From Pleurocapsa minor HA4230-MV1 (GTDB lineage Bacteria; Cyanobacteriota; Cyanobacteriia; Cyanobacteriales; Xenococcaceae), in assembly GCA_019359095.1 (NCBI GenBank), contig JAHHHZ010000005.1:1-55247 (forward strand): a stretch of DNA of 55,247 nucleotides, read 5' to 3'. Every line of letters begins with the position of its first letter. The first letter of the stretch is position 1. The notes under the pieces were generated by a model that did not search any database, was not told where the DNA came from, and saw nothing but the letters and a program-made list of their open reading frames with translations. Position numbers and translations under genes: made by a program. Positions 8,262-21,833 of this stretch are shown here, in pieces.

Positions 8262-11200
8262 TTAACTGGGAGAAGAATTAGCGATGCCGATTACCGTGGC
8301 ACTACCATTAAAGGTAATATTGCCTTTAGCAGAAATAGAACCGTACAAATTAGAACTGCCATTGAAGAAAAAGTTCTTAGCACTAATCAACTCGCCACGA
8401 GTATTAGAGGCCCCATTGTAATTGAGATCGCCTGCGGAAATTACCCGTAAATGACTCGACTCATCGACGGTATTGGTTGCTCCGTTAAAGGTAATATTGC
8501 CATTGTTCGTGCCTGTGGTTAGTAATGTATTTCCAGCAAACCGAGCGCCACTACCCGTATTAATCGAGCCACTGGCGAAGAGGGATAAATCTTTGGAACT
8601 GACGCTAGCCAGATTGACATTACCATTATTAGTGAGGAGCATCACGTTATTGAGATTGTGTCCGCTACCGTTAAAATTAAGGTCTCCCGATTCCACTGTA
8701 ATGACATAATTACTGAGATTGACATTACTGGGAATATTCAAGCCCCCATCAGTCACTTTAACTACGGTGGGACGAGTTGGGGTGCCTGGGGCGGGGAAAC
8801 GAGATGTCCAATCGCTTAGGGTATTGAGGGGATTTTGAGCCGCATTGAAAGTCACCGTGGTCGTACCCGTAGGAATTCGTCTGCTTAATTCTTGAGTTGC
8901 TAGATTTCCATAGGCGGGAACAGTGACAGTTTGTGCTTCAATTACCTGGGGTGGAATCAAATTGGCATATTGATTTCTAGCAGCGTTGGCAGTACTACTT
9001 AAATAACCAGGTGCCACGGCGACAGCCCGATCTACCAAGACTGGTTTGCCATTACTAAGGATGGGATTACCCGCCTCGTCGAGTTTAACCGCCAGTGCCT
9101 GATTGCCATTGAAGGTAAATCCTTTGCCCGCATAAATCTTGACATCATCGTTGGGATTAATGGCAACTCCATCAAAATCACTGCTGCCATTGATAAATAC
9201 CTGCCCTTCCGCTTTGATACTATAGCTGTTGAGGTCGTTATCAGTAATCGTGCCAATCCCTTGAGTATCGGCAATAGTGGCATTTACTGGATTGGTCAGA
9301 TTGAGTAAGATGGTTTCGTTATTTTCGGTAATGCGATCGCCCGTGACGGGGATAACTACAGTTTGACTGGTTTGCCCTGGAGCAAAAGTCAGAGTTCCCG
9401 ACATAGCCGTATAGTCAACTCCAGCAGTCGCCGTACCGTTAGCCGTGCTGTAATTAACCTTCACGGTTTTACCACTGGCAGCAGAGAGATTGACATCAAA
9501 GACCAGGTTTTGATTGCCACTATCGCCTTCGGTGATGGTGGGGTCATTCAGACTGAGACTAGGAGCGGGGTCGTTATCGATAATCGTGCCAACGCCAGTA
9601 CCATCAGCAATAGTGGCATTAACTGGACTGATAAGATTGAGACTAAAATTCTCATCGATTTCATCTAAGCGATCGCCATTGATGGGAACAGTTATAGATT
9701 GACTGGTTTGTCCTGGAACAAAAGTGATGCTGCCTGTAGTAGCTGTGTAGTCAGCACCAGCAGTAGCCGTCCCGTTAGCCGTACTGTAATTTACCGCTAC
9801 GATTTTACCACTAGCCTCAGACAAGTTCACGGTAAAGGTAAGATTGCTCGTACCACTATCTCCTTCAGTAATAGTTGGATCGTTAATAGTTAGACTGGGA
9901 ACAGGATCGTTATCGATAATGGTTGCTATGCCTCGATCGTCGGCGATGGTGGCATTGACGGGGCTGGTAAGATTGAGACTCAAGTTCTCATCGATTTCGT
10001 CTAGGCGATCGCCATTGATGGCAATAGTTACAGATTGACTGGTTTGTCCTGGAGCAAAGGTGATACTGCCTGTGGTCGCCGTGTAGTCTACTCCAGCAAC
10101 AGCCGTACCGTTAGCCGTACTGTAATTAACCGCAACAGGACGGGTGCTAGCTTCATTGAGACTGACGGTAAATACCGCGTTAGCCGTGCCGTTATCCCCT
10201 TCCACAATACTAATGTCATTAACTGCTAAAGTTGGTAATTTCTTAACGGTTAGTTGTAAGGTATCGTTACTGCTGGCATTACTGTCATCCCTGACGCTGT
10301 AAGTAACGGTGTAAATCCCAGACTCCGTATAGGTGTGGGTAGGATTATTAATACCATTGGTATTAGTGTTATCCCCAAAATCCCAATTAGTGGTGTGGGT
10401 ATCGAGAGAACCCCGATCGCTAAATGAACCATTAAAGCTAACGCTTTCCCCTACATATACGGTTTGATTATTGCCAGCTTCGACGGTAGGAGGGAGATTA
10501 TTGACCGTAATTTGCCTGGTTTGGCTGGTAGATGCACCGTCTGAATCCGAGACAGTAAGGGTAGTATTGTATGTCCCATCTTGAACGTATTGATGGTCGG
10601 TGTTTTGACCTTTGATTGTTTCGCTGCCGTCGCCGAAGTTCCAAGTGTAGGTAAGTTCGTCGGCTCCTGGGTCAGTGGCAGCAGCGCTAAAGTTAGCACG
10701 ATCGCCTTCATTAATCTCAGTATCACCAGTAATAAATGTAATCGTCGGAGTTACATTGTTAACCGTAACCTTGAAGGTACTGGTAGTATTTGCTCCTTCA
10801 TCATCCGTGACAGTTAAACTGACATCATATTCGCCATTATCTGCGTAGACGTGAGTTGGAGTTAAGGTATCTCTAATAGTACTACCATCACCAAAGTCCC
10901 AAGCAATGGTGTGAGTATCTAGTAAACCAGGATCGCTAAAGCTGGCGTTAAATGCTACGGGACTACCTTCATCACCAGTTTTATCCTCGACCACATCAAC
11001 TATCGGGGCAACATTATTGACGGTGATGGTTACGGTTTGAGTCGCCGTTGCACCATCGTCATCGGTAACGGTCAGATTTAGATCGTATTTACCATCTTCA
11101 AAAAAGGTTTGAGTGACGGTGACGTTTTCTCCCTTCACTTGCGTGCCATCAGCTAAGTTCCAGGTGTAGATTAAGCTATCGTCACCTGGATCTGTAGTAG

Positions 11201-14200
11201 AAGCCGTCAAGCTAGTGGTATCCCCTTCATCGATAGTGCGCTCGCCTTCAATCTTGATAATCGTGGGGGCCACATTATTGACCTTGACATCAAGAGACTG
11301 AGTAGTACTAGCTCCATCGGAGTCAGTCACGGTGGTGGTAACAGTGTACTCGCCGTTATCGGTGAAGATATGACCGACATCTTGACCAATTACAGTCTCA
11401 CTGTCATCGCCAAAGTTCCAAGTGTATGTAAGTTCGTCATTCCCCGCATCAGATGCCGTAGCACTAAAGCTGGCGCGATCGCCTTCATTTATCTCTGTAT
11501 CTCCTGTAAGTTGGGTAATTGTGGGAGCAAGATTATTTACCGTAACTTCAAAAGTGCTGTTAGTGCTTGCGCCGTCTCCATCGGTGACGGTGGCGGTAAC
11601 AGTGTACTCGCCATTTTTAGCAAAAGTATGGGTAATCTGCGAATCTGTGCCAGCAGCAGTTTCACCATCGCCGAAGTCCCAAGTATAGGTAAGCTCGTCC
11701 GAGCCTGGATCTGTGGCAACGACGGAGAATTTCGCCCGTTCTCCTTCATTGATTTGAGTATTTCCTGTCAATGATGCGATCGCTGGGGCAACATTGTTAA
11801 CCGTAACTTTTAAAGTACTAGTAGTACTGGCTCCTTCATCATCGGTAACTGTCAGACTGACATCATATTCTCCATTATTGGTATAAATATGAGTGGGAGT
11901 TAAGGTATCTGTAGTTGTTTCACCATCACCAAAGTCCCAGGCAATGGTGTGAGTATCGGTTATACCAGGGTCGCTGAAACTAGCGTTAAATGTTACGGAA
12001 CTACCTTCATTACTCGTGCGGTCTTCTCCCGCCTCTACTATTGGTGCTACGTTATTGACCGTAATAGTTAACGTCTGAGTTGCTGACGCGCCCTCTTCAT
12101 CGGTAACGGTGAGATTAACATCATATTCACTATCTTCAACAAAGCGCTGGGAGATCGTGACATCAGTGCCAGAGATTTGAGTGCCATCCTCTAAATTCCA
12201 GGTATAGGTGAGAGTGTCGTTGCCAGGATCGGTGGCTGTAGCGCTAAAGGTAGCTGTATCCCCTTCGTCAATCGAGCTATCGCCAGTTAAATCAATAATG
12301 GTAGGAGCAACATTATTAACCTTCACCTCCAGAGTAGAAGAGGTGGCTGCGCCATCTGAGTCGGTTACTGTAGCCGTAACGGTATAAGTCCCATTTTGAG
12401 TATAGGTGTGGGAGATATCCGTACCCGTGGCAGTTTGACCATCACCCAAGTCCCAAGAGTAAGTCAATTCGTCCGAGCCTGGATCGGTGGCGGTGATGGC
12501 AAATTTAGCCGTATCTCCTTCATTAATGTTGGTATCTCCTGTCAATGATGCGATCGCTGGGGCAGCATTATTGACGGTGACAGTCATGGTATTGGTGGTG
12601 CTGGCTCCATCTGAGTCGGTAATGATGACACTGGCTGTATAAATACCATTATCAACATAAGCATGACTGACAGAAGTTTCATCGCCATTAGTAGTCAATG
12701 GTTTGGAGCCGTCGCCAAAGTCCCAAGTCAGAGTATGAGTATCCAAGCGACCTGCATCGCTGAAGTTGAGATTGAATTCTACAGTATCTCCTTCTGTGGC
12801 AGTTTCATCGAGCCACGGATCGGCAATCGGCGCGACGTTCTTGACAGTTATGCTCAGGCTTTGAGTTACGCTTGCACCATCGTCATCGGTGACGGTAACG
12901 CTGGCTTGATACAGACCATTATCGGCAAAGATATGTTCGGCGTTTTCGCCCATCACGATTTCACTACCGTCTCCGAAATCCCAAACGTAGGTAAGGTCGT
13001 CAGCTCCTGCATCAACAGCAGTTACTGATAACCTGGCTGCATCACCTTCGTTAATAGTTAGAGCGTCTGTAATATCGCTAATAACTGGATTCGTATTGTT
13101 TACAGTTATATCCAGACTACTGCTAGAGGTCGCACCACTAGAATCGGTAACGGTTAAGGTGACGATATAATCGCCATTGTCATTGTATATATGGGGTATA
13201 GGGGTTAGGGTGTCGGGTGTCGTGATGGCTTCGCTGCCATCGCCAAAGTTCCAACTGTAGGTTAAAGGATCGTTGCCAGCATCTGTGGCGATCGCACTAA
13301 AGCTGGCGGTATCCCCTTCGTTTATTTCTGTATCGCCAGTAATAGTTTCAATTACTGGAGGAGTGTTATTAATCGTGACATCAATGGTAGATTCGGTTAC
13401 TGCTCCATCGCTATCGGTAACGGTGACAGTGGCGGTGTATGTGCCATCTGCTGCGTAAACGTGAGACTGAGTTTCTGAATTGGGTGTGGATTCAGCAGGA
13501 TATTCTGTGGTTATGGAATCACTACCATCGCCAAAATCCCAAGTTACTGTTAAATCGTCATTACCAGTATCATCAAATGTAGCTTCAAAATCAACAGATG
13601 AACCTTCATCTCCAGTTTTAGCTGTATCTGTAGTTATTGTGGGGGCAACATTATTTACCGTAATGCTGAGGTTGGAAGTAGTAGCTGCACCATCATCATC
13701 TGATGCAGTGACAACAGCATCATAAACACCATTCTGAGAAAAGGTGTGACTGGCGTTTGCACCTTGGACTTCTGATGTCCCGTCGGCAAAGTTCCAGGTG
13801 TAGGTAAGTTCATCATCTCCTGGATCTGTAGCTGTGGCATTGTAGTCAACTGCTTCTCCTTCATTAACAGTAGTTTTACCATTGATTTGGGTAAAGGTAG
13901 GAGCGACATTCTCCACGGTGACTTCTAAGGTTTGGGCTGTTTCTCCGCCGTCTTCATCTGATGCAGTCAGAGTTACGTTATAGGTGCCATTATCGGTAAA
14001 AATATGGCTTGCTTCTGCACCCTCGACCGTTTCACTGCCATCGCCGAAGTCCCAAATATAGGTGATAGTGTCAGACCCTGGATCTGTGGCAGTGGCACTA
14101 AAGTTAACTGTCTCTCCTTCTTTGACTGAACTATCACCTGTAAGATTGGTAATAGTAGGAGCTACGTTGTTTACGGTAACTGTTAACTCATCGCTGCTGA

Positions 14201-17200
14201 CTGCGCCATCACTATCGGTAACGGTAAAGGTAGCGTTATAAGTTCCGTTATCAGCATAGGTATGATTTGCCTCATTCGTATCGGCGGTGCTGCCGTCCGC
14301 AAAGTCCCAAGCAACTGAATGGGTATCTAAGCTACCTGTATCGGTAAAGCTGCCAGCAAAATTAACCTTACTTCCTTCATCTACAGTCTGGTCTGCTCCA
14401 GCATCGACTACTGGGACGGCGTTATCCACCACAATCTCAAAGTCTTGGGTGTCGCTACCGCCATGAGGATCGGTGACGGTTAACGTACCTGTATAAGTTC
14501 CATTATCCGCGTAGGGGCGCTTGGTTGTTCGCCCATCTGCTGTAGTACCATCATCGAATTCCCAAGTGTAGGTAAGTTCATCATTGCCTGGATCTGATGC
14601 TGTGGCATTTAAGGTAACTTCATCTCCTTCGGTGATGTTATCGCTAATCTGAATTTCGCTAATCTCTGGCAGAGCATTTTCTACCGTCACCTCGACCTCA
14701 GCAGGTTCGGAGGATTGTCCGTCCGAATCTTGAACTGTGTAGGTAAAGCTATCTTCGCCAATAAAGCGATCGCTTGGAGTATAGGTAACAGTCCCGTCAT
14801 TATTAACGGTAACAGTACCTTTGGTAGGTTCGGTTTGGATTTGGACTGATTCGGGGGTAATTGTGCCATCATCATCGGTGTCGTTAGCCAGGATATCGAT
14901 AATGGCTGGTTGCCCTTGAGCAGTGCTGGCAGTGTCGTTTACTGCCGTAGGAGGTAGGAGATTTTGGTCTGATAGGCGTACATCGTCGATTACCACGCGA
15001 CTATCTACATCGCCAAAGCCTAGAAGCTCGAAGTAAAGGGTGGCTTCTGTACCAGGGGTGAGGTTTGAGATATCAATGGTAACAGTGCGTGATTTGTCGA
15101 GATTGATGAGTTCTCCTGATGTTGCCCCGCCAATTCTTACCTGGTCGCTAAAGTAAGCAGTGCCGTCGTTTTGGATGTTGAGTAGGGAATCTGTTTCGGT
15201 TAAATCGTTGTCGCTAACAAGGGATTCCTGGGTATTGGCATCGAGTAAAGCGACTTCAAAGGCATCGGGTGGTGCAAGTTCGCTTGCTCCTAATTCTGTT
15301 TCAATTAACTTAAACTGAATTGTTTTGGCAGATTCAGGGACGGTAAAGGTTTGGCTGAAGTTGCTTAAAAATGGCGAGTCTTCTGTCAGTACCGCCTGAC
15401 CTGTTTCTACTTTACTTGCACCGCGAGTATCCCAGGCAAAGCTATCGGTAGTGGTGTCGGTGATGCTGAAGTCGCCGTTGGTAATACCGAGTAAAGGATC
15501 TGAGGTTAGTTTGGCAAGTAATTCTTCACCCTCTGGCTTGTTGCCATTTCTCTCAAATTCAGTAGCAATTAGTGATTGTAGTATTTGTACATCCAACTGA
15601 GAGGGCAGTTTCCGCATTCCTGGTGCGAGGTGGGTGTTGAGCAAGTCATAGGGATGGGCTATTTTGTCTAGGTGTTCGCCATCTAAGGTGGCGGTGAAGC
15701 CATCACCGATGAATTTGGTAGTATCGTTTTTGGTTTCTATGTTGTCGCTATATCCTGCGTAACCGTCGATAAATCCATAGAGGTGCGAGAGTTCATGGAG
15801 AACTGTTGTAAGTAGATCGTATTTGCCCGAAGCTTCTGATTCGGCAGCAGCAAGTAGATAAGTTTCTTCCTTGTCTGCCTTGTCTCCCACTAACGAAAAT
15901 TCGCTGTTATCCAGAGGAGTCGAGTCAATGAACCAGCCGACACCGTTGGCATCGGAGTCGATCAGGATTGTTCCTGCTTTGGGTACTCCAGATGAGTCGA
16001 AGCCTGTGATGCTTGCTTCAGCTAGTTGTCCTGATGGCAGGTCGGTGATTTGGAACTCAATGTTTAGTGGTGTTTCTGATTTGAGTAAATCTGACCAGAT
16101 TTTGGTTGCGCTATTATTGAGTTCATTAATTATTTGAGGTGTCGAATTATGACTGCTGAGGAGTTGCTCGTTAGATATGCTGCTGGCGAACGAGATTTTA
16201 CTGGCGCCGATCTCAGTGGAGCTGATTTGATTGAGGCTCGACTGACTGGAATCAAACTGAGGGATGCTAAGTTGATCTGCACTGATTTGAGTGGGGCTAA
16301 CTTGCGAGATGCCAGTTTGAGTGGAGCCGATCTCAGTGGGGCTGACTTGAGTGGGGCTGACTTGACTGAAGCCGACTTGATGAACGCCATTTTGAGGAAT
16401 GTCGATCTGATTAAAACTATTTTGATTGGCATTGAGAGCTACGCTACCGATTTTAGCCAAGCCAATTTGACCGAAGCTATCTGTATTGGTGCCATTTTGA
16501 GAGGTGCTAGATTCAGAGATGCCAATCTCACTAGAGCCAATCTTAAGTGTGCTGTCATGGAGTGGGCTATCTTGGAAGGATGTAATCTCGAAGGGGCTAA
16601 CCTCTTCGAGGTCAATTTGACTCGTGCTAAGTTGATGGGGGTTAATCTTTTTGCTGCTAGAGTCGAACGGGCTAACTTCACCGAAGCTAACCTCACTGGA
16701 GCTAAATTCATCGACTACTTGTCCGATGTTTGCTACGTTACTTTCAATAACACCATCATGACTGATGGAATTCTTCAAGAAGGTTTGAATATCTGGGGAG
16801 CTTAAATCTGAAGCTAAATAAATTGAATTGCTCAACAAAGATGCAGATAAAGAAGGATCGTAATATCGAAAATCTTCATTTGCTTCAATACGATTTTCTA
16901 CTTCATCAGGTAAGTTAGATAGAAAATCATAATCTGTTTGTGATTCAATCCAATCGACTGATTTTTTCCAGTGTGTCCAATTTTCTGTTTCAAAATTTGG
17001 ATCTGTAGGATCGTTAGGAATATCAATAGCGAATAACTGATGAATACCGCCACCCTGTACATCACTTAGCGTATCCGAGGTTAAACCCTGCTTATCCAAA
17101 ACAATTGCAACCTTCCAGAAATGAGACGGAATGTTAATATCTGAGTTTCTAATAGGATCGTTAGCAAGTAAATCATCCCAAATTGGATCGTTATTAATGC

Positions 17201-19457
17201 TGCCTCTACCTCCTGTAATAACGTATACTTCTTTTCCTTGAGTAGTAAAATTCTTCAAATAGTCTTCAAAATCTGACCAAACACCCTCATTCATAGTTTT
17301 TAATTGAGGAAGTATGTTTGAAGTCAAGTAAGTTGAGTAATGTTCTTTATAACTTCTAGTTCTGGATTGAGCCTCAGTTAAATGACCTCTATTAAAATAT
17401 GTAGAGCCAGCATAATCACTATGCTGAGTTTTTGGAAATGATGATGGCAACAAAAACTCTTGTTGGAAAAAGGGGCTTGTTGTATTTCCACCAAGCCAAG
17501 AGCTATTCATCTGATAACTAGCCCAATTAGCACCTTTTAAGCTCTTATTATAAGAAATTGCATATTGTGGTCGTTCTATTAAATAATTATTCGCAAAAGC
17601 TTCAGGATTTTCAGGCGTATACCTTGCATTACTAGGATTATCCATCGCTAAATGCTGACTCTGAAAGAAAACATTATCCAAATAAACAGTGTTGCCATTA
17701 ACTTCAAAAGTAAGGGTTGCGACTTTCCCTCTGAGTGCATTAGGTACAGGTAAATTGAAGGTTTCAAAACCTGTTTGTCCGTAATCAACTTTAAGTCGAT
17801 CTTCAAAAATATCTTGTGGTGTATGTGGACCCGTTACGGAAGTAACCGCAGGAGTCAAACTAATCGAACCCAAGTCATGATTTTCAAACCCAGGAACATC
17901 AGACTGCATCGAAACATCAACCGTACCACCAGTAAGTTCGGGAACACGAAGATCGAACCTTAAAGTACCCCAATCAGGAACGACAAAAGGATTATGAGTA
18001 ATACTCTTCAAGCCATTACCCAACTCCAGCGCATAACTCTGATTACCAGCAACTCCAAATTTAAGATACTTTTGTAATTTCCCATTAGAATTTTCATTAT
18101 TCCAACCAGGAATGGGTTGAACATCTAACTTACTGTCAATTGCATCGAAATTACCATCATAAACAGTCGGAACAGCAAAATCACCCCGTTGTCTGGGTTT
18201 TGCCGTATTATCAAAACTGATAGGAGTGCGCTTAGTTAAATCTCCTTGAGGGCGTTTATAATAACCATTGCCTAACAGCGAATAATACCAACCAGTACCA
18301 TTACCCTCCCACTGAGAATATTTATACCGATCATCATCGATCACACCACCAGTAGCATGATCGACAACATACCAAGGAAAATCAGTGTTTTGAAACTCTG
18401 GCTGGGCAAAATCACCTCTGCGTCGATGAATCGGATATTTGTTGGAGAAACCTGCCCCCAGACCAACTCGATCCAAGTTGATATTGGTAGTTCCTTCGTA
18501 CCAGGCAATTGACCTTTCATTGGAGTCTTTGTTAATATTTCTGTTTTCTCCCGCATCACCAGTAAAACCAACCCGATTTTTAAAGACCTCTTCGTGATCA
18601 AAACCTCCTAAATCGATATTTACATCTGCACCAGCCAGTTGATAACTAAATGGCTCAGTCGCACTTTGATAGTAGTTATCGGCAAAAGTAACATTATCCC
18701 AAACCTCAATACTAGGCTCAGGGATTGCATCACTAGCTAGAGGACGATCTTTATTTACCTTATCGGCATCGATAGTGGTCATCTGCAAATCGGGGAAGGT
18801 ATCAGCGAATTGAGTATCATTACCCTGTTCATCTTTTTTCGGGAAGGCAGTACCAATACGCTGGATAATCTCGCTGTTAACCACCCCACCAGAACCAAAA
18901 CCAATAAAGTGGAAGGGAGAATTAAATAAGCTGCCTGGAGTATAAATTAAGTCGCCTTTTTGGTCATAGATTTTAGTTCCCTCACCGATTTCGCCTTTGC
19001 CCTCTAGTTTTTCATTGAGATCCAGTTTAATTAAAGAAGCAAATATTTTATCAGCGGTGGCTTCTGCTGTACCCGAGTTGTAATTAAGTTTGGTAGAATC
19101 TTCAAACCAATCTGCGATCAGAACCAATGGTTTAGTTAGATCGAATCGATCGCCATTAGAATTAGCAGATATCTTGACCCAATTACCAGTAGTTGATTCA
19201 TAACGCAGCACATTGCCTGTTCCTGTGAGGGATTCATCAACCTTAGAGGCTATGTTTAATCCCAAATCATGAGCTTTATTGAAAGAATAAAGATCGTTTT
19301 TAGCAGCATCAGGAGTAATTACGGTAACGCTGGGGAAAGCAGTAACATTCTCAGTCTCAACTAATTGCGGATACCAGTCAAAGGAAGATGGGTTCTGTTG
19401 GTTGACCTGCCCATTGGTACTCGTCCATAGTTGATAATGATATCTACCAGGAGTCAA
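8262..19457 (-). CDS. Giant extracellular-type protein, 5' end truncated by insertion sequences
   Basis: About 3,731 codons remain. Order from the N-terminus: a hydrolase-like region (1-300, with HFIGFGSGGVVNSEI near 182); a NUC1 non-specific nuclease domain (about 635-830, FNRGHLTEA and TYLTSNILPQ); a Ser/Gln-rich repeat linker (885-1103); a zinc metalloprotease (about 1104-1300, HELSHLYGF near 1219); a jelly-roll-like region; a cadherin-like module (1500-1592, AVNDTAS, ILANDTDDDG); 17 PKD repeats (1593-3075, WDFGDGS); 3 Calx-beta repeats (3076-3415); and a repetitive C-terminus (FNGSG, ITFNGSA). It is likely a surface or secreted calcium-binding degradative protein. The TTG at 19457 is internal: the frame stays open upstream (NARLNLTPGR) until IS DNA, so signal peptide and start are lost. 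It may be a pseudogene. Confidence 0.8.
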   Translation of the reverse strand: MTPGRYHYQLWTSTNGQVNQQNPSSFDWYPQLVETENVTAFPSVTVITPDAAKNDLYSFNKAHDLGLNIASKVDESLTGTGNVLRYESTTGNWVKISANSNGDRFDLTKPLVLIADWFEDSTKLNYNSGTAEATADKIFASLIKLDLNEKLEGKGEIGEGTKIYDQKGDLIYTPGSLFNSPFHFIGFGSGGVVNSEIIQRIGTAFPKKDEQGNDTQFADTFPDLQMTTIDADKVNKDRPLASDAIPEPSIEVWDNVTFADNYYQSATEPFSYQLAGADVNIDLGGFDHEEVFKNRVGFTGDAGENRNINKDSNERSIAWYEGTTNINLDRVGLGAGFSNKYPIHRRRGDFAQPEFQNTDFPWYVVDHATGGVIDDDRYKYSQWEGNGTGWYYSLLGNGYYKRPQGDLTKRTPISFDNTAKPRQRGDFAVPTVYDGNFDAIDSKLDVQPIPGWNNENSNGKLQKYLKFGVAGNQSYALELGNGLKSITHNPFVVPDWGTLRFDLRVPELTGGTVDVSMQSDVPGFENHDLGSISLTPAVTSVTGPHTPQDIFEDRLKVDYGQTGFETFNLPVPNALRGKVATLTFEVNGNTVYLDNVFFQSQHLAMDNPSNARYTPENPEAFANNYLIERPQYAISYNKSLKGANWASYQMNSSWLGGNTTSPFFQQEFLLPSSFPKTQHSDYAGSTYFNRGHLTEAQSRTRSYKEHYSTYLTSNILPQLKTMNEGVWSDFEDYLKNFTTQGKEVYVITGGRGSINNDPIWDDLLANDPIRNSDINIPSHFWKVAIVLDKQGLTSDTLSDVQGGGIHQLFAIDIPNDPTDPNFETENWTHWKKSVDWIESQTDYDFLSNLPDEVENRIEANEDFRYYDPSLSASLLSNSIYLASDLSSPDIQTFLKNSISHDGVIESNVANIGQVVDEFSSSEVSFGEVSPFDSSSKKINPHQLSTSQIDLEEVSPFEITSFQDSPLHDSTLKIGSSEIGISESSTSQNGTNTDSFGQIGLAKIGSVALNANQNSFNQIDIPQNGVHQVGFSQVSPTQVSPTEIGSTQTGISQVSPTQISADQLSIPQFDSSQSSLNQISSTEIGASKISFASSISNEQLLSSHNSTPQIINELNNSATKIWSDLLKSETPLNIEFQITDLPSGQLAEASITGFDSSGVPKAGTILIDSDANGVGWFIDSTPLDNSEFSLVGDKADKEETYLLAAAESEASGKYDLLTTVLHELSHLYGFIDGYAGYSDNIETKNDTTKFIGDGFTATLDGEHLDKIAHPYDLLNTHLAPGMRKLPSQLDVQILQSLIATEFERNGNKPEGEELLAKLTSDPLLGITNGDFSITDTTTDSFAWDTRGASKVETGQAVLTEDSPFLSNFSQTFTVPESAKTIQFKLIETELGASELAPPDAFEVALLDANTQESLVSDNDLTETDSLLNIQNDGTAYFSDQVRIGGATSGELINLDKSRTVTIDISNLTPGTEATLYFELLGFGDVDSRVVIDDVRLSDQNLLPPTAVNDTASTAQGQPAIIDILANDTDDDGTITPESVQIQTEPTKGTVTVNNDGTVTYTPSDRFIGEDSFTYTVQDSDGQSSEPAEVEVTVENALPEISEIQISDNITEGDEVTLNATASDPGNDELTYTWEFDDGTTADGRTTKRPYADNGTYTGTLTVTDPHGGSDTQDFEIVVDNAVPVVDAGADQTVDEGSKVNFAGSFTDTGSLDTHSVAWDFADGSTADTNEANHTYADNGTYNATFTVTDSDGAVSSDELTVTVNNVAPTITNLTGDSSVKEGETVNFSATATDPGSDTITYIWDFGDGSETVEGAEASHIFTDNGTYNVTLTASDEDGGETAQTLEVTVENVAPTFTQINGKTTVNEGEAVDYNATATDPGDDELTYTWNFADGTSEVQGANASHTFSQNGVYDAVVTASDDDGAATTSNLSITVNNVAPTITTDTAKTGDEGSSVDFEATFDDTGNDDLTVTWDFGDGSDSITTEYPAESTPNSETQSHVYAADGTYTATVTVTDSDGAVTESTIDVTINNTPPVIETITGDTEINEGDTASFSAIATDAGNDPLTYSWNFGDGSEAITTPDTLTPIPHIYNDNGDYIVTLTVTDSSGATSSSSLDITVNNTNPVISDITDALTINEGDAARLSVTAVDAGADDLTYVWDFGDGSEIVMGENAEHIFADNGLYQASVTVTDDDGASVTQSLSITVKNVAPIADPWLDETATEGDTVEFNLNFSDAGRLDTHTLTWDFGDGSKPLTTNGDETSVSHAYVDNGIYTASVIITDSDGASTTNTMTVTVNNAAPAIASLTGDTNINEGDTAKFAITATDPGSDELTYSWDLGDGQTATGTDISHTYTQNGTYTVTATVTDSDGAATSSTLEVKVNNVAPTIIDLTGDSSIDEGDTATFSATATDPGNDTLTYTWNLEDGTQISGTDVTISQRFVEDSEYDVNLTVTDEEGASATQTLTITVNNVAPIVEAGEDRTSNEGSSVTFNASFSDPGITDTHTIAWDFGDGETTTDTLTPTHIYTNNGEYDVSLTVTDDEGASTTSTLKVTVNNVAPAIASLTGNTQINEGERAKFSVVATDPGSDELTYTWDFGDGETAAGTDSQITHTFAKNGEYTVTATVTDGDGASTNSTFEVTVNNLAPTITQLTGDTEINEGDRASFSATASDAGNDELTYTWNFGDDSETVIGQDVGHIFTDNGEYTVTTTVTDSDGASTTQSLDVKVNNVAPTIIKIEGERTIDEGDTTSLTASTTDPGDDSLIYTWNLADGTQVKGENVTVTQTFFEDGKYDLNLTVTDDDGATATQTVTITVNNVAPIVDVVEDKTGDEGSPVAFNASFSDPGLLDTHTIAWDFGDGSTIRDTLTPTHVYADNGEYDVSLTVTDDEGANTTSTFKVTVNNVTPTITFITGDTEINEGDRANFSAAATDPGADELTYTWNFGDGSETIKGQNTDHQYVQDGTYNTTLTVSDSDGASTSQTRQITVNNLPPTVEAGNNQTVYVGESVSFNGSFSDRGSLDTHTTNWDFGDNTNTNGINNPTHTYTESGIYTVTYSVRDDSNASSNDTLQLTVKKLPTLAVNDISIVEGDNGTANAVFTVSLNEASTRPVAVNYSTANGTAVAGVDYTATTGSITFAPGQTSQSVTIAINGDRLDEIDENLSLNLTSPVNATIADDRGIATIIDNDPVPSLTINDPTITEGDSGTSNLTFTVNLSEASGKIVAVNYSTANGTATAGADYTATTGSITFVPGQTSQSITVPINGDRLDEIDENFSLNLISPVNATIADGTGVGTIIDNDPAPSLSLNDPTITEGDSGNQNLVFDVNLSAASGKTVKVNYSTANGTATAGVDYTAMSGTLTFAPGQTSQTVVIPVTGDRITENNETILLNLTNPVNATIADTQGIGTITDNDLNSYSIKAEGQVFINGSSDFDGVAINPNDDVKIYAGKGFTFNGNQALAVKLDEAGNPILSNGKPVLVDRAVAVAPGYLSSTANAARNQYANLIPPQVIEAQTVTVPAYGNLATQELSRRIPTGTTTVTFNAAQNPLNTLSDWTSRFPAPGTPTRPTVVKVTDGGLNIPSNVNLSNYVITVESGDLNFNGSGHNLNNVMLLTNNGNVNLASVSSKDLSLFASGSINTGSGARFAGNTLLTTGTNNGNITFNGATNTVDESSHLRVISAGDLNYNGASNTRGELISAKNFFFNGSSNLYGSISAKGNITFNGSATVIGIANSSPS
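16149..16805 (+). CDS. Pentapeptide-repeat protein, antisense within the giant gene
   Basis: A 218-residue protein starting at ATG 16149 with GAGG about 7 bases upstream; a TTG five codons earlier is less likely. The N-terminus MTAEELLVRYAAGERDFTGA is typical of cyanobacterial pentapeptide-repeat proteins. It is followed by about 35 A(D/N)LXX units (GADLSGADL, GANLRDASLSGADL) that would form a right-handed quadrilateral beta-helix, and ends FNNTIMTDGILQEG. Function of such proteins is mostly unknown. All of it lies opposite the giant gene, with codons exactly in register, and neither strand has a stop. Leucines here are TTG, CTG, CTC or CTT, never TTA or CTA, which would be stops opposite. 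The protein family is sure; expression is not known. Confidence 0.75.
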   Translation: MTAEELLVRYAAGERDFTGADLSGADLIEARLTGIKLRDAKLICTDLSGANLRDASLSGADLSGADLSGADLTEADLMNAILRNVDLIKTILIGIESYATDFSQANLTEAICIGAILRGARFRDANLTRANLKCAVMEWAILEGCNLEGANLFEVNLTRAKLMGVNLFAARVERANFTEANLTGAKFIDYLSDVCYVTFNNTIMTDGILQEGLNIWGA

Positions 19458-19465
19458 GTTAAGAC

Positions 19466-20346
19466 GGGCATTTCGCAGGTTGATGAAAAAAGGTAGGGTA
19501 TTAAAATGAAGAGTTTAAATGACCCATTGTGGAGATCCAAGTTAAAAATCTAGATCACTTAGGTATAGTAGCAGGAATTGTTGACCAAATAGGATTAGTT
19601 GAAGAAATAGATAGGCAAATAGAAAAACATCCGCAACAGATAATCAGTACAGGGCAAGTAGTCAAAGCCATGATTTTGAATGGATTGGGCTTTGTGAGCG
19701 CGCCTTTATACTTGTTTGGAGAGTTTTTCATTGGCAAAGCCACAGAACATTTGTTAGGAGAAGGAATTAAACCAGAACACTTGAATGATGATCGAATAGC
19801 CAGAGGATTAGATAGCCTGTGGAATCAAGGCTTAACTCCATTATTTACAAGCATTGCCATGTTAGCACAACAAAAATGCCAGCTTGATACCAAAAGTTTA
19901 CATCTCGACTCAAGTAGTTTTAGCCTCGAAGGAAGCTATGAAATAGAAGAGAAAGGGCAATCTAGAGAATCAATCGAAGAGGTACACATCACTTATGGCT
20001 ATTCAAGAGACCGTCGACCAGATCTCAAGCAATTTATGATGGATGTGATCTGCACAGGAGATGGAGACGTACCATTGTTTGTGCGAGTCGGTGACGGGAA
20101 TGAATCTGACCGTGCCATTTTTGCTCAATTGATGAAACAGTTTCAAAAACAATGGAATCTCGATAGCATTTATGTTGCTGACAGTGCCTTGTACAGTGCC
20201 GAAAATTTACAGCAATTGGGAGAATTGAGATGGATTACTCGTGTTCCTCAAAGCTTGAAAGCAGCCAAAGTTTTAGTAGAGTCTGTAGAGGATGAGCTAT
20301 TTTGTGAGAGTAAGATTTCTGGTTATCGTATAGCATCGTGTTGTAA
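19466..20346 (+). mobile_element. IS1634-family element, truncated
   Basis: The left end is taken as about 19466 (GGGCATTTCGCAGGTTGATG), where homology to the giant gene stops. The right part is missing: element sequence stops near 20346, where an IS6-type end begins. No terminal repeat pair can therefore be checked. Its insertion explains the lost 5' end of the giant gene. Confidence 0.6.
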
Positions 20347-20389
20347 GGTTGTGTCGCAAAAAATGAAACAGGCTGATGTAGTACAATAA
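19529..20389 (+). pseudogene. IS1634-family transposase (DUF4277), C-terminally truncated
   Basis: A GTG-started frame of 286 codons. The start MEIQVKNLDHLGIVAGIVDQ and the block VVKAMILNGLGFVSAPLYLF are the DUF4277 N-terminal region of IS1634-type transposases. The first catalytic Asp is in SLHLDSSSF, the second in YVADSALYS. The family usually runs to over 500 residues. Here homology ends at about residue 272 (KISGYRIASC), and the last residues (KVVSQKMKQADVVQ) are read from the next element. The glutamate of the DDE triad and the C-terminal half are absent, so it cannot transpose by itself. Confidence 0.85.
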
Positions 20390-20681
20390 TATTAAACGAT
20401 AACATTGATAAATTTAAATCTTTTTGATGAATTCCCAAGAACCTTTTAAGTGGCGACATTTCCAAACAGAAATTATTTTGCTTAACGTTCGTTGGTATTT
20501 AAAATATCCTTTGAGTTATCGTAATCTAGAAGAAATGATGTTAGAGAGAGGGTTGAAAGTCGATCACTCTACTATTGGTCGTTGGGTTTTAACTTATTCT
20601 CCTCAAATAGATGAAAGAACTCGTCGTCATTTGAAACTAACTAATGATTCATGGAAAGTAGATGAAACTTATATCAAGGTC
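20347..20681 (+). mobile_element. IS6-family element fragment
   Basis: The left end GGTTGTGTCGCAAAAAATG resembles IS6-type terminal repeats. The element is cut at 20681, where the IS4-type terminal repeat starts. Its other half is not found beyond that IS4 copy, so it was lost rather than simply split. Confidence 0.6.
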
Positions 20682-20705
20682 CTAAGTACAGGACAAAAGT
20701 TTTAA
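20424..20705 (+). pseudogene. IS6-family transposase, N-terminal 85 residues only
   Basis: The frame begins MNSQEPFKWRHFQTEIILLN. It shows the IS6/IS26 pattern RWYLKYPLSYRNLEEMMLER, then GLKVDHSTIGRWVLTYSPQI and the first catalytic Asp in WKVDETYIKV. IS6 transposases have about 230 residues; only the helix-turn-helix region and start of the catalytic core remain. The final codons (LSTGQKF) come from the IS4 end. It is non-functional. Confidence 0.9.
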
Positions 20706-21833
20706 AGATTGAAGAAACTCAGACTGTTTTAAGTCCAAATCGGTAAAGATTGAACGTAAATGATCGAGACCATAACGGAAAATACTTTTAGCTAATCTTC
20801 CATGCTTTTTAATTTTGAGTGGTCGATGTTGGTTTAGCCACTCACCCGTCTTGATTGACCAGCACAAAGCCAAAGCCATCAAAGCAATGAGCTTACTCAA
20901 TCGCTCTGAATCAGTAAAATGAGTAGACTCAAGGCAAAATCCTCTAGTTTTAAACATTCCAAATAAAGTCTCGATTCCCCATCGTTTTCCATAATCTGAA
21001 ATAGCTGTAGTAGTTGAATCAGAAGAGACAATTATCAATAGCTCACCGTCTTCTAAACGTAAAGCTGAAACATAAACGGAGCGTCCCCAAACCCATCGAC
21101 GACCAGACAGAATTCTAGTCTGACCTGGTTTTAGATGGGCAAAGATAATCGAAGCTCTGAGTTCTTTCTTGCCATCGAAAATACGATCGCTTTTTCTAAT
21201 TCTTAGTCGAAAAGAAATTGTAGGCTCAATCAACAGGTAAGTTAACCATAGTTTACCGACGAACTCTCGGTCGCCAGTTAAATAAGCAACCTCAGTATCG
21301 GGAAAGATTGAGTAGAATTGGTCGAGTAGATCCATTCGTTCATCGCCATTAGAATTACCTTTTTTGTTCAGCATCTTCCAAACCACAGGATATGCAACTC
21401 CATTGTGAACTACCCCTAGCATCAGAATATTGAATCTCGTTGTACCAAATGACCACTCAGTTCTATCGACGCTGAGAACCCAAGGTTGAGGGATATCCAT
21501 AATGCCAATAACTGCTCTGGCAATTGCCGTATAATCAAGGTCAAAACTGCGGAAAAATCGTTGTAAGCGCTTGTGATTAGAGTCTATTTTGACTCTACTG
21601 CGAAAACCTGTAGCTAGCTCGGTTAGATTGACTGTTTTTACTCTTAGCAAAGCAACCAGAAACAAGGCCAGAAAATTTAGCCTTGCTCCATGCCATCCCA
21701 GGTGAGGCTTCAAAGTTTGTCGAAGTAAGTTAATCTGATTCATAGGGTTTGTATGAAGTGTAGTTACTTTTAATCAAACCCTCTTCCTGTCTACTCTTGC
21801 AAGTTGTTTCTCTTTTTTTGTCCCGTACAGAGG
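20681..21833 (-). mobile_element. IS4-family insertion sequence, complete
   Basis: The ends are inverted repeats: CCTAAGTACAGGACAAAA at 20681-20698 and, reading inward from 21833, CCTCTGTACGGGACAAAA (15 of 18 match). The element is 1,153 bp with one transposase gene filling it. No target duplication is evident. A decayed second copy lies at about 46969-47992 with the same end. Confidence 0.8.
20682..21743 (-). CDS. IS4-family transposase
   Basis: A 353-residue DDE transposase that moves the surrounding element. Catalytic residues: Asp in LSVDRTEWSF, Asp in YLTGDREFVG, and Glu in the IS4 signature YGKRWGIETLFGMFK, which matches Y-(2)-R-(3)-E-(6)-K exactly. The N-terminus has the helical region LKPHLGWHGARLNFLALFLV. 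The stop codon lies inside the terminal repeat. Length and all motifs are intact, so it is likely active. It is 76% or so alike by eye to the broken copy at 46969-47901. Confidence 0.93.
   Translation of the reverse strand: MNQINLLRQTLKPHLGWHGARLNFLALFLVALLRVKTVNLTELATGFRSRVKIDSNHKRLQRFFRSFDLDYTAIARAVIGIMDIPQPWVLSVDRTEWSFGTTRFNILMLGVVHNGVAYPVVWKMLNKKGNSNGDERMDLLDQFYSIFPDTEVAYLTGDREFVGKLWLTYLLIEPTISFRLRIRKSDRIFDGKKELRASIIFAHLKPGQTRILSGRRWVWGRSVYVSALRLEDGELLIIVSSDSTTTAISDYGKRWGIETLFGMFKTRGFCLESTHFTDSERLSKLIALMALALCWSIKTGEWLNQHRPLKIKKHGRLAKSIFRYGLDHLRSIFTDLDLKQSEFLQSLKLLSCT

What the first reader, a model, noticed from the sequence alone, without database searches (positions are those of the whole stretch)
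16149..16805. A complete pentapeptide-repeat gene lies antisense and codon-in-register inside the giant secreted-protein gene
The plus strand encodes a textbook pentapeptide protein (start MTAEELLVRYAAGERDFTGA, then A(D/N)LXX units). The minus strand stays open for all 219 codons and reads as a Ser/Gln/Thr-rich repeat linker (SQVSPTQIS-like) between the nuclease and protease domains. Codons on the two strands occupy the same triplets, so AxLxx on one strand gives a five-residue repeat on the other. Leucine codons that would be stops opposite (TTA, CTA) are absent from the plus frame. Either a pentapeptide gene inserted and its antisense became a linker, or both strands code. This is a rare possible case of overprinting.
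Basis: partly seen in the sequence, partly recalled or inferred. Interest (0 to 1): 0.78.

Follow-up and report, generated by a model that had tools for sequence, protein, structure and literature searches.

The report
Antidote gene hidden inside toxin gene
In cyanobacteria, a pentapeptide-repeat gene that looks like the antidote to a secreted DNA-cutting toxin lies backwards, codon on codon, inside the toxin's own gene, and both readings of the same DNA show signs of selection.

Summary
The plus ORF (16149-16805) is a genuine HetL-like pentapeptide-repeat protein (PPR); the giant minus ORF runs through it codon on codon.

I collected 25 embedded PPRs in six family groups plus two named genomes. 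They use no TTA/CTA (0 of 570 Leu codons); the giant frame beside them uses 537 of 1,091. Absence of stops is part of how embedded cases are recognised, but they also avoid codons read backwards as Cys (GCA 7/466 against 131/854 in non-overlapping relatives), Tyr and Trp, and not those read as Ser, Phe or Leu. So the giant frame is selected for composition. In 28 of 28 pairs compared, substitutions follow the PPR frame: PPR is the conserved product.

PPR goes with the nuclease domain just before it, not the protease after it. All 35 displayed nuclease ORFs of 500 aa or more have a PPR gene (15 embedded, 20 adjacent); of 31 shorter ones, 2.

Best reading: the PPR is the immunity protein of a Tox-NucA-like toxin, nested antisense in the toxin gene. 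The antidote role is inferred, not shown. In this window the toxin gene appears 5'-truncated beside a transposase gene.

The parts
16149..16805 (+). Pentapeptide-repeat gene (218 aa), HetL-like N-terminal cap MTAEELLVRYAAGERDF; proposed immunity protein
16135..16141 (+). Shine-Dalgarno-like TGAGGTG upstream of the PPR ATG
   Evidence: by a simple motif check SD-like sites at 18 of 23 embedded, 15 of 31 orphan and 7 of 22 standalone PPRs
16149..16802 (-). Antisense reading of the PPR: Ser/Thr/Gln/Glu/Ile/Val-rich linker of the giant protein, no Cys, no Trp
   Evidence: no secondary structure in most of this stretch of a low-confidence model
16905..17594 (-). Endonuclease_NS (NucA-like) domain with NRGH motif; proposed toxin domain
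   Evidence: Pfam PF01223 E 2e-39; motif alignment; related PDB nuclease chains
15600..16118 (-). Zinc-metalloprotease-like domain (HELSH) directly after the linker
8262..19457 (-). Giant multidomain ORF (3,731 aa): pre-toxin region, nuclease, linker, protease-like, PKD/Ig array, Calx-beta
17651..19457 (-). Region before the nuclease, shared by embedded and non-overlapping toxin loci
   Evidence: tblastn
10500..14954 (-). Bacterial Ig and PKD domain array of the giant protein (approximate borders)
19529..20389 (+). DUF4277/DDE transposase ORF where the 5' part of the giant gene is missing

Best explanation
The locus is a polymorphic-toxin-like gene with its antidote nested inside it. The giant minus-strand protein displays a NucA-type nuclease (Endonuclease_NS). 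The plus-strand PPR is the cognate immunity protein: cytoplasmic, acidic, and perhaps a DNA mimic that blocks the nuclease in the producer. It is transcribed towards the nuclease from a promoter inside the protease-coding part. The antisense of the PPR gene is read as a flexible Ser/Thr/Gln-rich spacer between nuclease and protease. Nesting keeps toxin and antidote on one piece of DNA, so recombination cannot separate them. Shown by sequence: the recurring architecture, constraint on the PPR frame, compositional selection on the giant frame, and the tie of PPR to nuclease. Inferred: expression of both products, inhibition of the nuclease by PPR, and the promoter. In this window the toxin gene appears to have lost its 5' part beside a transposase gene, so here the pair may be decaying.
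For: Recurrence: 25 embedded PPRs in frames of 533 to 10,783 aa, in family codes f1, f8, f15, f17, f31, f33 and in Calothrix and Nostoc records. Giant-frame selection: 0 antisense stops in 4,617 codons, against 576 in 7,043 for 22 standalone and 360 in 7,966 for 38 nuclease-adjacent non-overlapping PPRs; the zero is partly by definition of the embedded set, the following is not. Depleted in embedded against non-overlapping PPRs are codons read backwards as Cys (GCA 7/466 v 131/854; ACA 7/282 v 80/398), Tyr (ATA 21/265 v 84/372; GTA 12/194 v 45/307), Trp (CCA 7/66 v 34/106), and some read as Arg or His (GCG, ACG, GTG); codons read as Ser, Phe or Leu (GGA, AGA, CGA, GAA, AAA, CAA) are not depleted. 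In the same loci the giant frame uses GCA in 223/645 Ala codons, the PPR in 7/466. PPR constraint: window v G019, PPR positions 1/2/3 differ at .096/.073/.252, like the giant frame in the nuclease flank (.087/.060/.244); PPR identity exceeds antisense identity in 28 of 28 pairs. PPR tied to nuclease: 35 of 35 displayed ORFs of 500 aa or more (15 embedded, 20 adjacent) against 2 of 31 shorter ones. Co-divergence: nuclease-PPR rho .43, p .002, protease-PPR rho -.03, p .56 (n = 16; nuclease-PPR with all 18: rho .39, p .005). G019 carries the window's nuclease-PPR pair before another domain. Catalytic His kept in 18 of 18 aligned PPR-bearing nucleases; the one long-ORF nuclease domain without a PPR has Gln there. 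Embedded PPRs: median pI 4.6 v 5.5 for standalone.
Against: No expression, binding or killing data. The nuclease module is itself acidic (pI 4.4-5.7), so charge attraction is no argument. Adjacency could reflect another partnership (chaperone, regulator). 31 orphan PPRs without a giant gene were collected; 22 of them still have no antisense stop, so openness can outlast the giant gene. Short nucleases do without a PPR (29 of 31). Many protease homologues lack a PPR: 15 of the 40 regions, mostly distant or cut ones. The window's toxin gene appears 5'-truncated. Giant-frame residues are not conserved beyond composition (70% against 87% identity, window v G019). Only one long-ORF nuclease without PPR was seen, so the catalytic-loss point is anecdotal. 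Embedded and non-overlapping sets come from partly different genomes, and milder codon shifts (against Ala and Lys read backwards) also occur.
Confidence: 0.62

Rival explanations
1. Both strands code, but the PPR is not an antidote: it is a chaperone, secretion helper or regulator of the giant protein, or its antisense RNA limits giant mRNA.
For: The overlap alone says nothing about function; any cognate partner would co-vary with the nuclease.
Against: PPR follows the nuclease rather than the giant backbone: the same nuclease-PPR pair stands before different downstream domains, and 29 of 31 short nuclease loci have no PPR. Regulation by antisense RNA would not need non-overlapping pairs (20 of 35).
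Confidence: 0.2
2. Only the PPR is functional; the giant ORF is open through it because PPR codon choice happens to avoid antisense stops, and the giant protein ends at the nuclease or is dead.
For: Substitutions follow the PPR frame. The window's giant gene appears to have lost its 5' end. 22 of 31 orphans are open antisense without a giant gene.
Against: Non-overlapping PPRs of the same family use TTA/CTA in 327 of 1,090 Leu codons, embedded ones in 0 of 570; avoidance extends to antisense Cys/Tyr/Trp codons. The protease domain after the PPR is conserved in the giant frame.
Confidence: 0.1
3. Only the giant protein is functional; the PPR ORF is the antisense shadow of a five-residue linker repeat.
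For: A five-residue repeat on one strand imposes one on the other; the giant frame is open across many domains.
Against: Position 3 of the PPR frame changes fastest in 28 of 28 pairs. The PPR has a HetL-type cap, often a PDGS-like end, and a confident beta-helix model (mean pLDDT 84.5). SD-like sites persist where the downstream giant domain differs (L047, L052). Non-overlapping homologues exist.
Confidence: 0.03
4. The nested state is transient: tail-to-tail pairs become nested by chance read-through and revert, without selection for nesting itself (this concerns the origin and can hold beside the antidote reading).
For: Embedded and non-overlapping states are mixed on the nuclease tree (11 changes). 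Some non-overlapping PPRs next to embedded relatives keep few TTA/CTA (L269 4/20 v 28/53 in its nuclease; L275 3/21 v 14/59).
Against: Entry from a pair with several antisense stops needs them purged first: none of the 38 non-overlapping PPRs is free of them.
Confidence: 0.3

Closest known systems
Polymorphic toxin systems with Tox-NucA (Zhang et al. 2012, PMC3482391; passages read)
   Same: NucA-type nuclease in a very large multidomain protein; cognate gene next to it; alternating cassette arrays and orphan partners
   Different: Its tables list Imm36, Imm-SUKH and Imm-NTF2 for Tox-NucA, no cyanobacteria for it, and 'pentapeptide' does not occur in the part held (300,000 of 357,715 characters); its methods counted same-strand genes as operons and looked at head-to-head pairs. 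Here the partner is a PPR, mostly tail to tail or inside the toxin ORF.
Ionophoric (pore-forming) colicins
   Same: Immunity gene on the strand opposite the toxin operon with its own promoter (review PMC9517006, passage read)
   Different: There the immunity gene is a membrane protein beside the toxin gene (recalled); here it is a PPR and is overlapped along its whole length.
HetL and cyanobacterial PPRs (PDB 3du1, 2j8k, 6omx)
   Same: N-terminal cap and right-handed beta-helix; HetL is linked to self-immunity against the PatS inhibitor (PMC7476756, listing and start of abstract only)
   Different: Not known to me as nuclease partners or as nested genes (recalled)
MfpA/Qnr/AlbG
   Same: PPRs that act on a DNA enzyme, gyrase (recalled; folds matched)
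   Different: Topoisomerase targets; genes not nested in a toxin gene (recalled)
pop antisense to ompA, E. coli (PMC7103648, abstract and outline read)
   Same: 603-bp ORF fully antisense inside a coding gene
   Different: A single novel gene in that report; here both genes belong to broad families, appear functionally linked, and the overlap recurs across families

Membership tests
Pentapeptide-repeat protein | Pfam PF00805 above its cut-off; tandem A(D/N)LXX | tested here: met
   163.5 bits v 20.2
Pentapeptide-repeat protein | Quadrilateral beta-helix fold | tested here: met
   AF2 mean pLDDT 84.5; best Foldseek hits are PPR solenoids and HetL; a prediction, not a solved structure
Polymorphic toxin/immunity system | Toxin domain in a large modular protein | tested here: met
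   Endonuclease_NS with catalytic motif among PKD/Ig/Calx-beta domains; RHS ORFs next to two related loci
Polymorphic toxin/immunity system | Cognate immunity gene adjacent to the toxin domain | tested here: inconclusive
   PPR adjacent or embedded in 35 of 35 displayed long ORFs, but its immunity function is untested
Polymorphic toxin/immunity system | Cassette exchange and orphan modules | tested here: met
   Same nuclease-PPR pair before different domains in window and G019; nuclease/PPR arrays (L263, L264); 31 orphan PPRs
Polymorphic toxin/immunity system | Secretion signal and delivery route | not tested
   The window gene appears 5'-truncated
Polymorphic toxin/immunity system | Toxicity and neutralisation by the partner | not testable with these tools
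   bench test needed
Overlapping (overprinted) genes | Selection visible in both frames | tested here: met
   PPR frame: substitution pattern. Giant frame: codon avoidance; no formal overlapping-gene dN/dS model was run
Overlapping (overprinted) genes | Both products expressed | not testable with these tools
   needs ribosome profiling and proteomics
NucA/NuiA pair | NuiA-type inhibitor | tested here: not met
   The partner is a PPR; Pfam returns only pentapeptide/decapeptide families for it

The most novel reading that the evidence does not exclude
A bacterial toxin gene whose sense strand encodes the killer and whose antisense strand, codon on codon inside it, encodes its own antidote: a self-contained, inseparable toxin/antidote gene found in this form in several families of one cyanobacterial order. 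It would add pentapeptide-repeat proteins as a class of nuclease antidotes, and be a long same-register antisense overlap of two functionally linked genes.
Probability: 0.5. Interest if true: 0.92.

Novelty: new variant of a known kind. Interest (0 to 1): 0.86.

Why it matters
Long antisense gene overlaps in bacteria are disputed because selection is hard to show in both frames. Here 25 embedded genes, 38 non-overlapping homologues and an amino-acid-specific codon signature make dual coding testable by comparison. If the antidote reading holds, it adds pentapeptide-repeat proteins as nuclease immunity proteins, shows immunity genes that same-strand operon searches would miss, and gives a simple solution to keeping toxin and antidote together.

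Tried and rejected
Shadow ORF (PPR frame spurious): rejected by substitution pattern, homologues and model. Chance openness: rejected. PPR tied to the protease: rejected by co-divergence and by L047, L052 and L271, where other domains follow. Charge attraction: the nuclease is acidic too, so dropped. The structure model of nuclease-linker-protease was poor (mean pLDDT 34); its lack of structure in the linker is weak support at most. One literature search for pentapeptide repeat, antisense, overlapping genes and cyanobacteria together found no paper. Searches listed papers but showed no report of this arrangement in what I saw of them (listings; passages of five papers; abstract and outline of one); most subscription papers are not held.

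Known weaknesses of counts. Embedded PPRs are recognised by lying in a long open frame, so their zero stops (and zero TTA, CTA, TCA) are partly by definition; the Cys/Tyr/Trp codon avoidance is not. The 25 include L195 and L198, whose giant frame is nearly closed on the nuclease side, L052 (533-aa frame), L201 (short contig) and L118 (PPR cut by a contig end). In one search the L263 nuclease count spans two ORFs and what lies between; without L263 the totals are 314/1,010 (nuclease) and 306/1,010 (PPR), the same conclusion. The standalone set (22) holds 21 own-genome genes and one of G011. PPR detection is a home-made repeat score with thresholds from 14 to 22. The 31 short-nuclease controls were those fetched, not random. 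One search displayed only part of its matches. Of 40 regions fetched around protease matches held a PPR and 15 did not: L200, L202, L205 (37-47% identical), L197 (contig end too near to tell), and 11 more distant ones; a 62% fragment in a Nostoc record (L160) had none either. Of the regions, L122-L127, L129, L131 and L132 held no embedded PPR. Orphans were found mostly through remnants of protease or linker similarity, so they lean towards recent decay. The nuclease tree is the quick kind (SH-aLRT only).

Full report
Observation. The plus strand holds a complete pentapeptide-repeat (PPR) gene, ATG at 16149 and TAA ending at 16805, with a Shine-Dalgarno-like TGAGGTG at 16135-16141. The minus strand is one open frame from 19514 to 8262 and passes through the PPR in register. 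Pfam gives PF00805 for the plus product. For the minus product it gives Endonuclease_NS, 17 PKD stretches and 3 Calx-beta stretches. The 173 residues after the linker carry HELSH and are conserved in homologues; NCBIfam metallo_LGF matches weakly, below its cut-off.

It recurs. In the own genome a second PPR (63% identical) lies antisense in an ORF with the same kind of linker, and a third lies in a 3,781-aa frame. Relatives repeat it: G019 has two in one 8,564-aa frame, and G015, G025 and G011 have them in frames of 6,632, 10,641 and 4,251 aa. In the order, giant ORFs with the protease domain in family codes f8, f15, f17, f31 and f33, and in named records of Calothrix brevissima NIES-22 and Nostoc mirabile, also carry a PPR antisense and in register just before the protease. 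The PPRs differ greatly in length and sequence but most share the cap EELLRRYAAGERDF, and many end in a PDGS-like motif. It is not universal: 25 of 40 regions fetched around protease matches held a PPR and 15 did not. Three of the latter are fairly close homologues (37-47% identical: L200, L202, L205), one (L197) is cut by a contig end, and eleven are more distant.

Is the giant frame selected? Yes, for composition. The 25 embedded PPRs have 0 antisense stops in 4,617 codons. The standalone set (22, of which 21 own-genome) has 576 in 7,043, the non-overlapping nuclease-adjacent set (38) 360 in 7,966, and the orphans (31) 11 in 5,138. Zero stops is partly how embedded cases are recognised; the following is not. 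Codons read backwards as Cys, Tyr and Trp are depleted, and some read as Arg or His, while codons read backwards as Ser, Phe or Leu are not; there are milder shifts against Ala and Lys. In the same loci the giant frame on the nuclease side uses GCA in 223 of 645 Ala codons and TTA/CTA in 537 of 1,091 Leu codons, the PPR in 7 of 466 and 0 of 570. In non-overlapping pairs nuclease and PPR use TTA/CTA alike (362 of 1,130 and 327 of 1,090; 314 and 306 of 1,010 each without L263, whose nuclease count was sloppy). A general dislike of A-ending codons would not do this.

Is the PPR frame selected? Yes, as a sequence. Between window and G019, PPR positions 1/2/3 differ at .096/.073/.252, almost the same as the giant frame in the adjacent nuclease (.087/.060/.244). 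PPR identity is 87% against 70% for the antisense reading. In all 28 pairs compared (orphans included) position 3 changes most, position 2 least, and PPR identity exceeds antisense identity. SD-like sites are present at 18 of 23 embedded, 15 of 31 orphan and 7 of 22 standalone PPRs by a simple motif check, also where another giant domain follows (L047, L052). The model of the window PPR is a confident beta-helix (mean pLDDT 84.5); its best Foldseek matches are designed PPR solenoids and HetL. So constraint switches strand at the PPR borders, and the giant linker is free in sequence but not in composition.

What the PPR goes with. An alignment of the nuclease domains was searched in 388 genomes. 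All 35 displayed rows with an open frame of at least 500 aa have a PPR: 15 embedded and 20 adjacent without overlap. Of the 20, 17 have the nearest PPR tail to tail with the nuclease ORF (14 of 17 within 210 bp, one 1.2 kb away) and 3 (L259, one in L263, L274) have it on the same strand; in L274 the PPR start lies about 25 bp after the nuclease stop. One of the 35 (L278) has a stop inside its nuclease. L264 and L263 alternate nucleases and PPRs like toxin/immunity cassettes. Among 31 distinct loci with shorter frames, 2 have a PPR nearby (L253; L286, cut by a contig end). PPR similarity tracks nuclease similarity (rho .43, p .002, n = 16; rho .39, p .005 with all 18) and not protease similarity (rho -.03, p .56, n = 16). 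In G019 the window's nuclease-PPR pair stands before Ig-like domains instead of the protease. Of 18 aligned PPR-bearing nucleases all keep the His of xGH and 17 the Asn of N..P (L118 has Ser); the one long-ORF nuclease domain found without a PPR has PGQ. This is the pattern of a toxin and its immunity protein.

Evolution. Embedded and non-overlapping states need 11 changes on the nuclease tree, and starred branches force at least 8 gains or losses of each label. Some non-overlapping PPRs beside embedded relatives have few TTA/CTA codons (L269, L275), as expected after loss of the downstream part of a giant gene; entry into nesting would need antisense stops purged first. Orphan PPRs, many still carrying remnants of the protease start, look like decayed giants. 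The window's own giant gene appears 5'-truncated: homologues align from about residue 17 of the frame onwards and go on further upstream, and a transposase gene starts at 19529.

Mechanism. Shown: dual selection, recurrence, tie to the nuclease. Inferred: the PPR neutralises the nuclease in the producer, perhaps as a DNA mimic, as recalled for MfpA and Qnr on gyrase; the linker is a flexible spacer that the protease may cut; nesting prevents loss of the antidote. Charge gives no help, because the nuclease module is acidic too.

What is known. Zhang et al. 2012 (PMC3482391, passages) list other immunity families for Tox-NucA and no cyanobacteria for it, and do not mention pentapeptide in the part held; they counted same-strand neighbours as operons and looked at head-to-head pairs. 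Ionophoric colicins have the immunity gene on the opposite strand (PMC9517006, passage). pop/ompA (PMC7103648, abstract and outline) is a comparable overlap. Searches showed no report of a nested antisense immunity gene or of a PPR as nuclease immunity protein in what I saw of them; the library lacks most subscription papers.

Noticed in passing
window 19529-21743: Two transposase genes (DUF4277/DDE and a second DDE on the other strand) sit where homologues of the giant gene continue upstream, so the window's toxin gene appears to lack its 5' part.
   Followed up: partly
L058 (own genome contig 11), L128 (contig 19) and L130 (contig 11): Orphan PPRs of the same family without a giant gene, most with linker or protease remnants on the opposite strand.
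   Followed up: partly
L144 (own genome contig 33), 117-2126: A 658-aa PPR ORF whose in-register antisense (274 aa) also scores as pentapeptide-like; PPR on both strands.
   Followed up: no
L263 and L264: Arrays of alternating nuclease ORFs and PPR genes.
   Followed up: partly
L262 1-3102 (minus) and L266 3026-5164 (plus): RHS-repeat/DUF6531 ORFs just beyond the nuclease/PPR pair, on the toxin strand.
   Followed up: partly
L283 3380-4048: Both strands open in register with a weak pentapeptide score on one; origin unclear.
   Followed up: no
L274 174-5799 (minus): Nuclease ORF and PPR ORF on the same strand, followed by another ORF with a partial Endonuclease_NS domain.
   Followed up: partly
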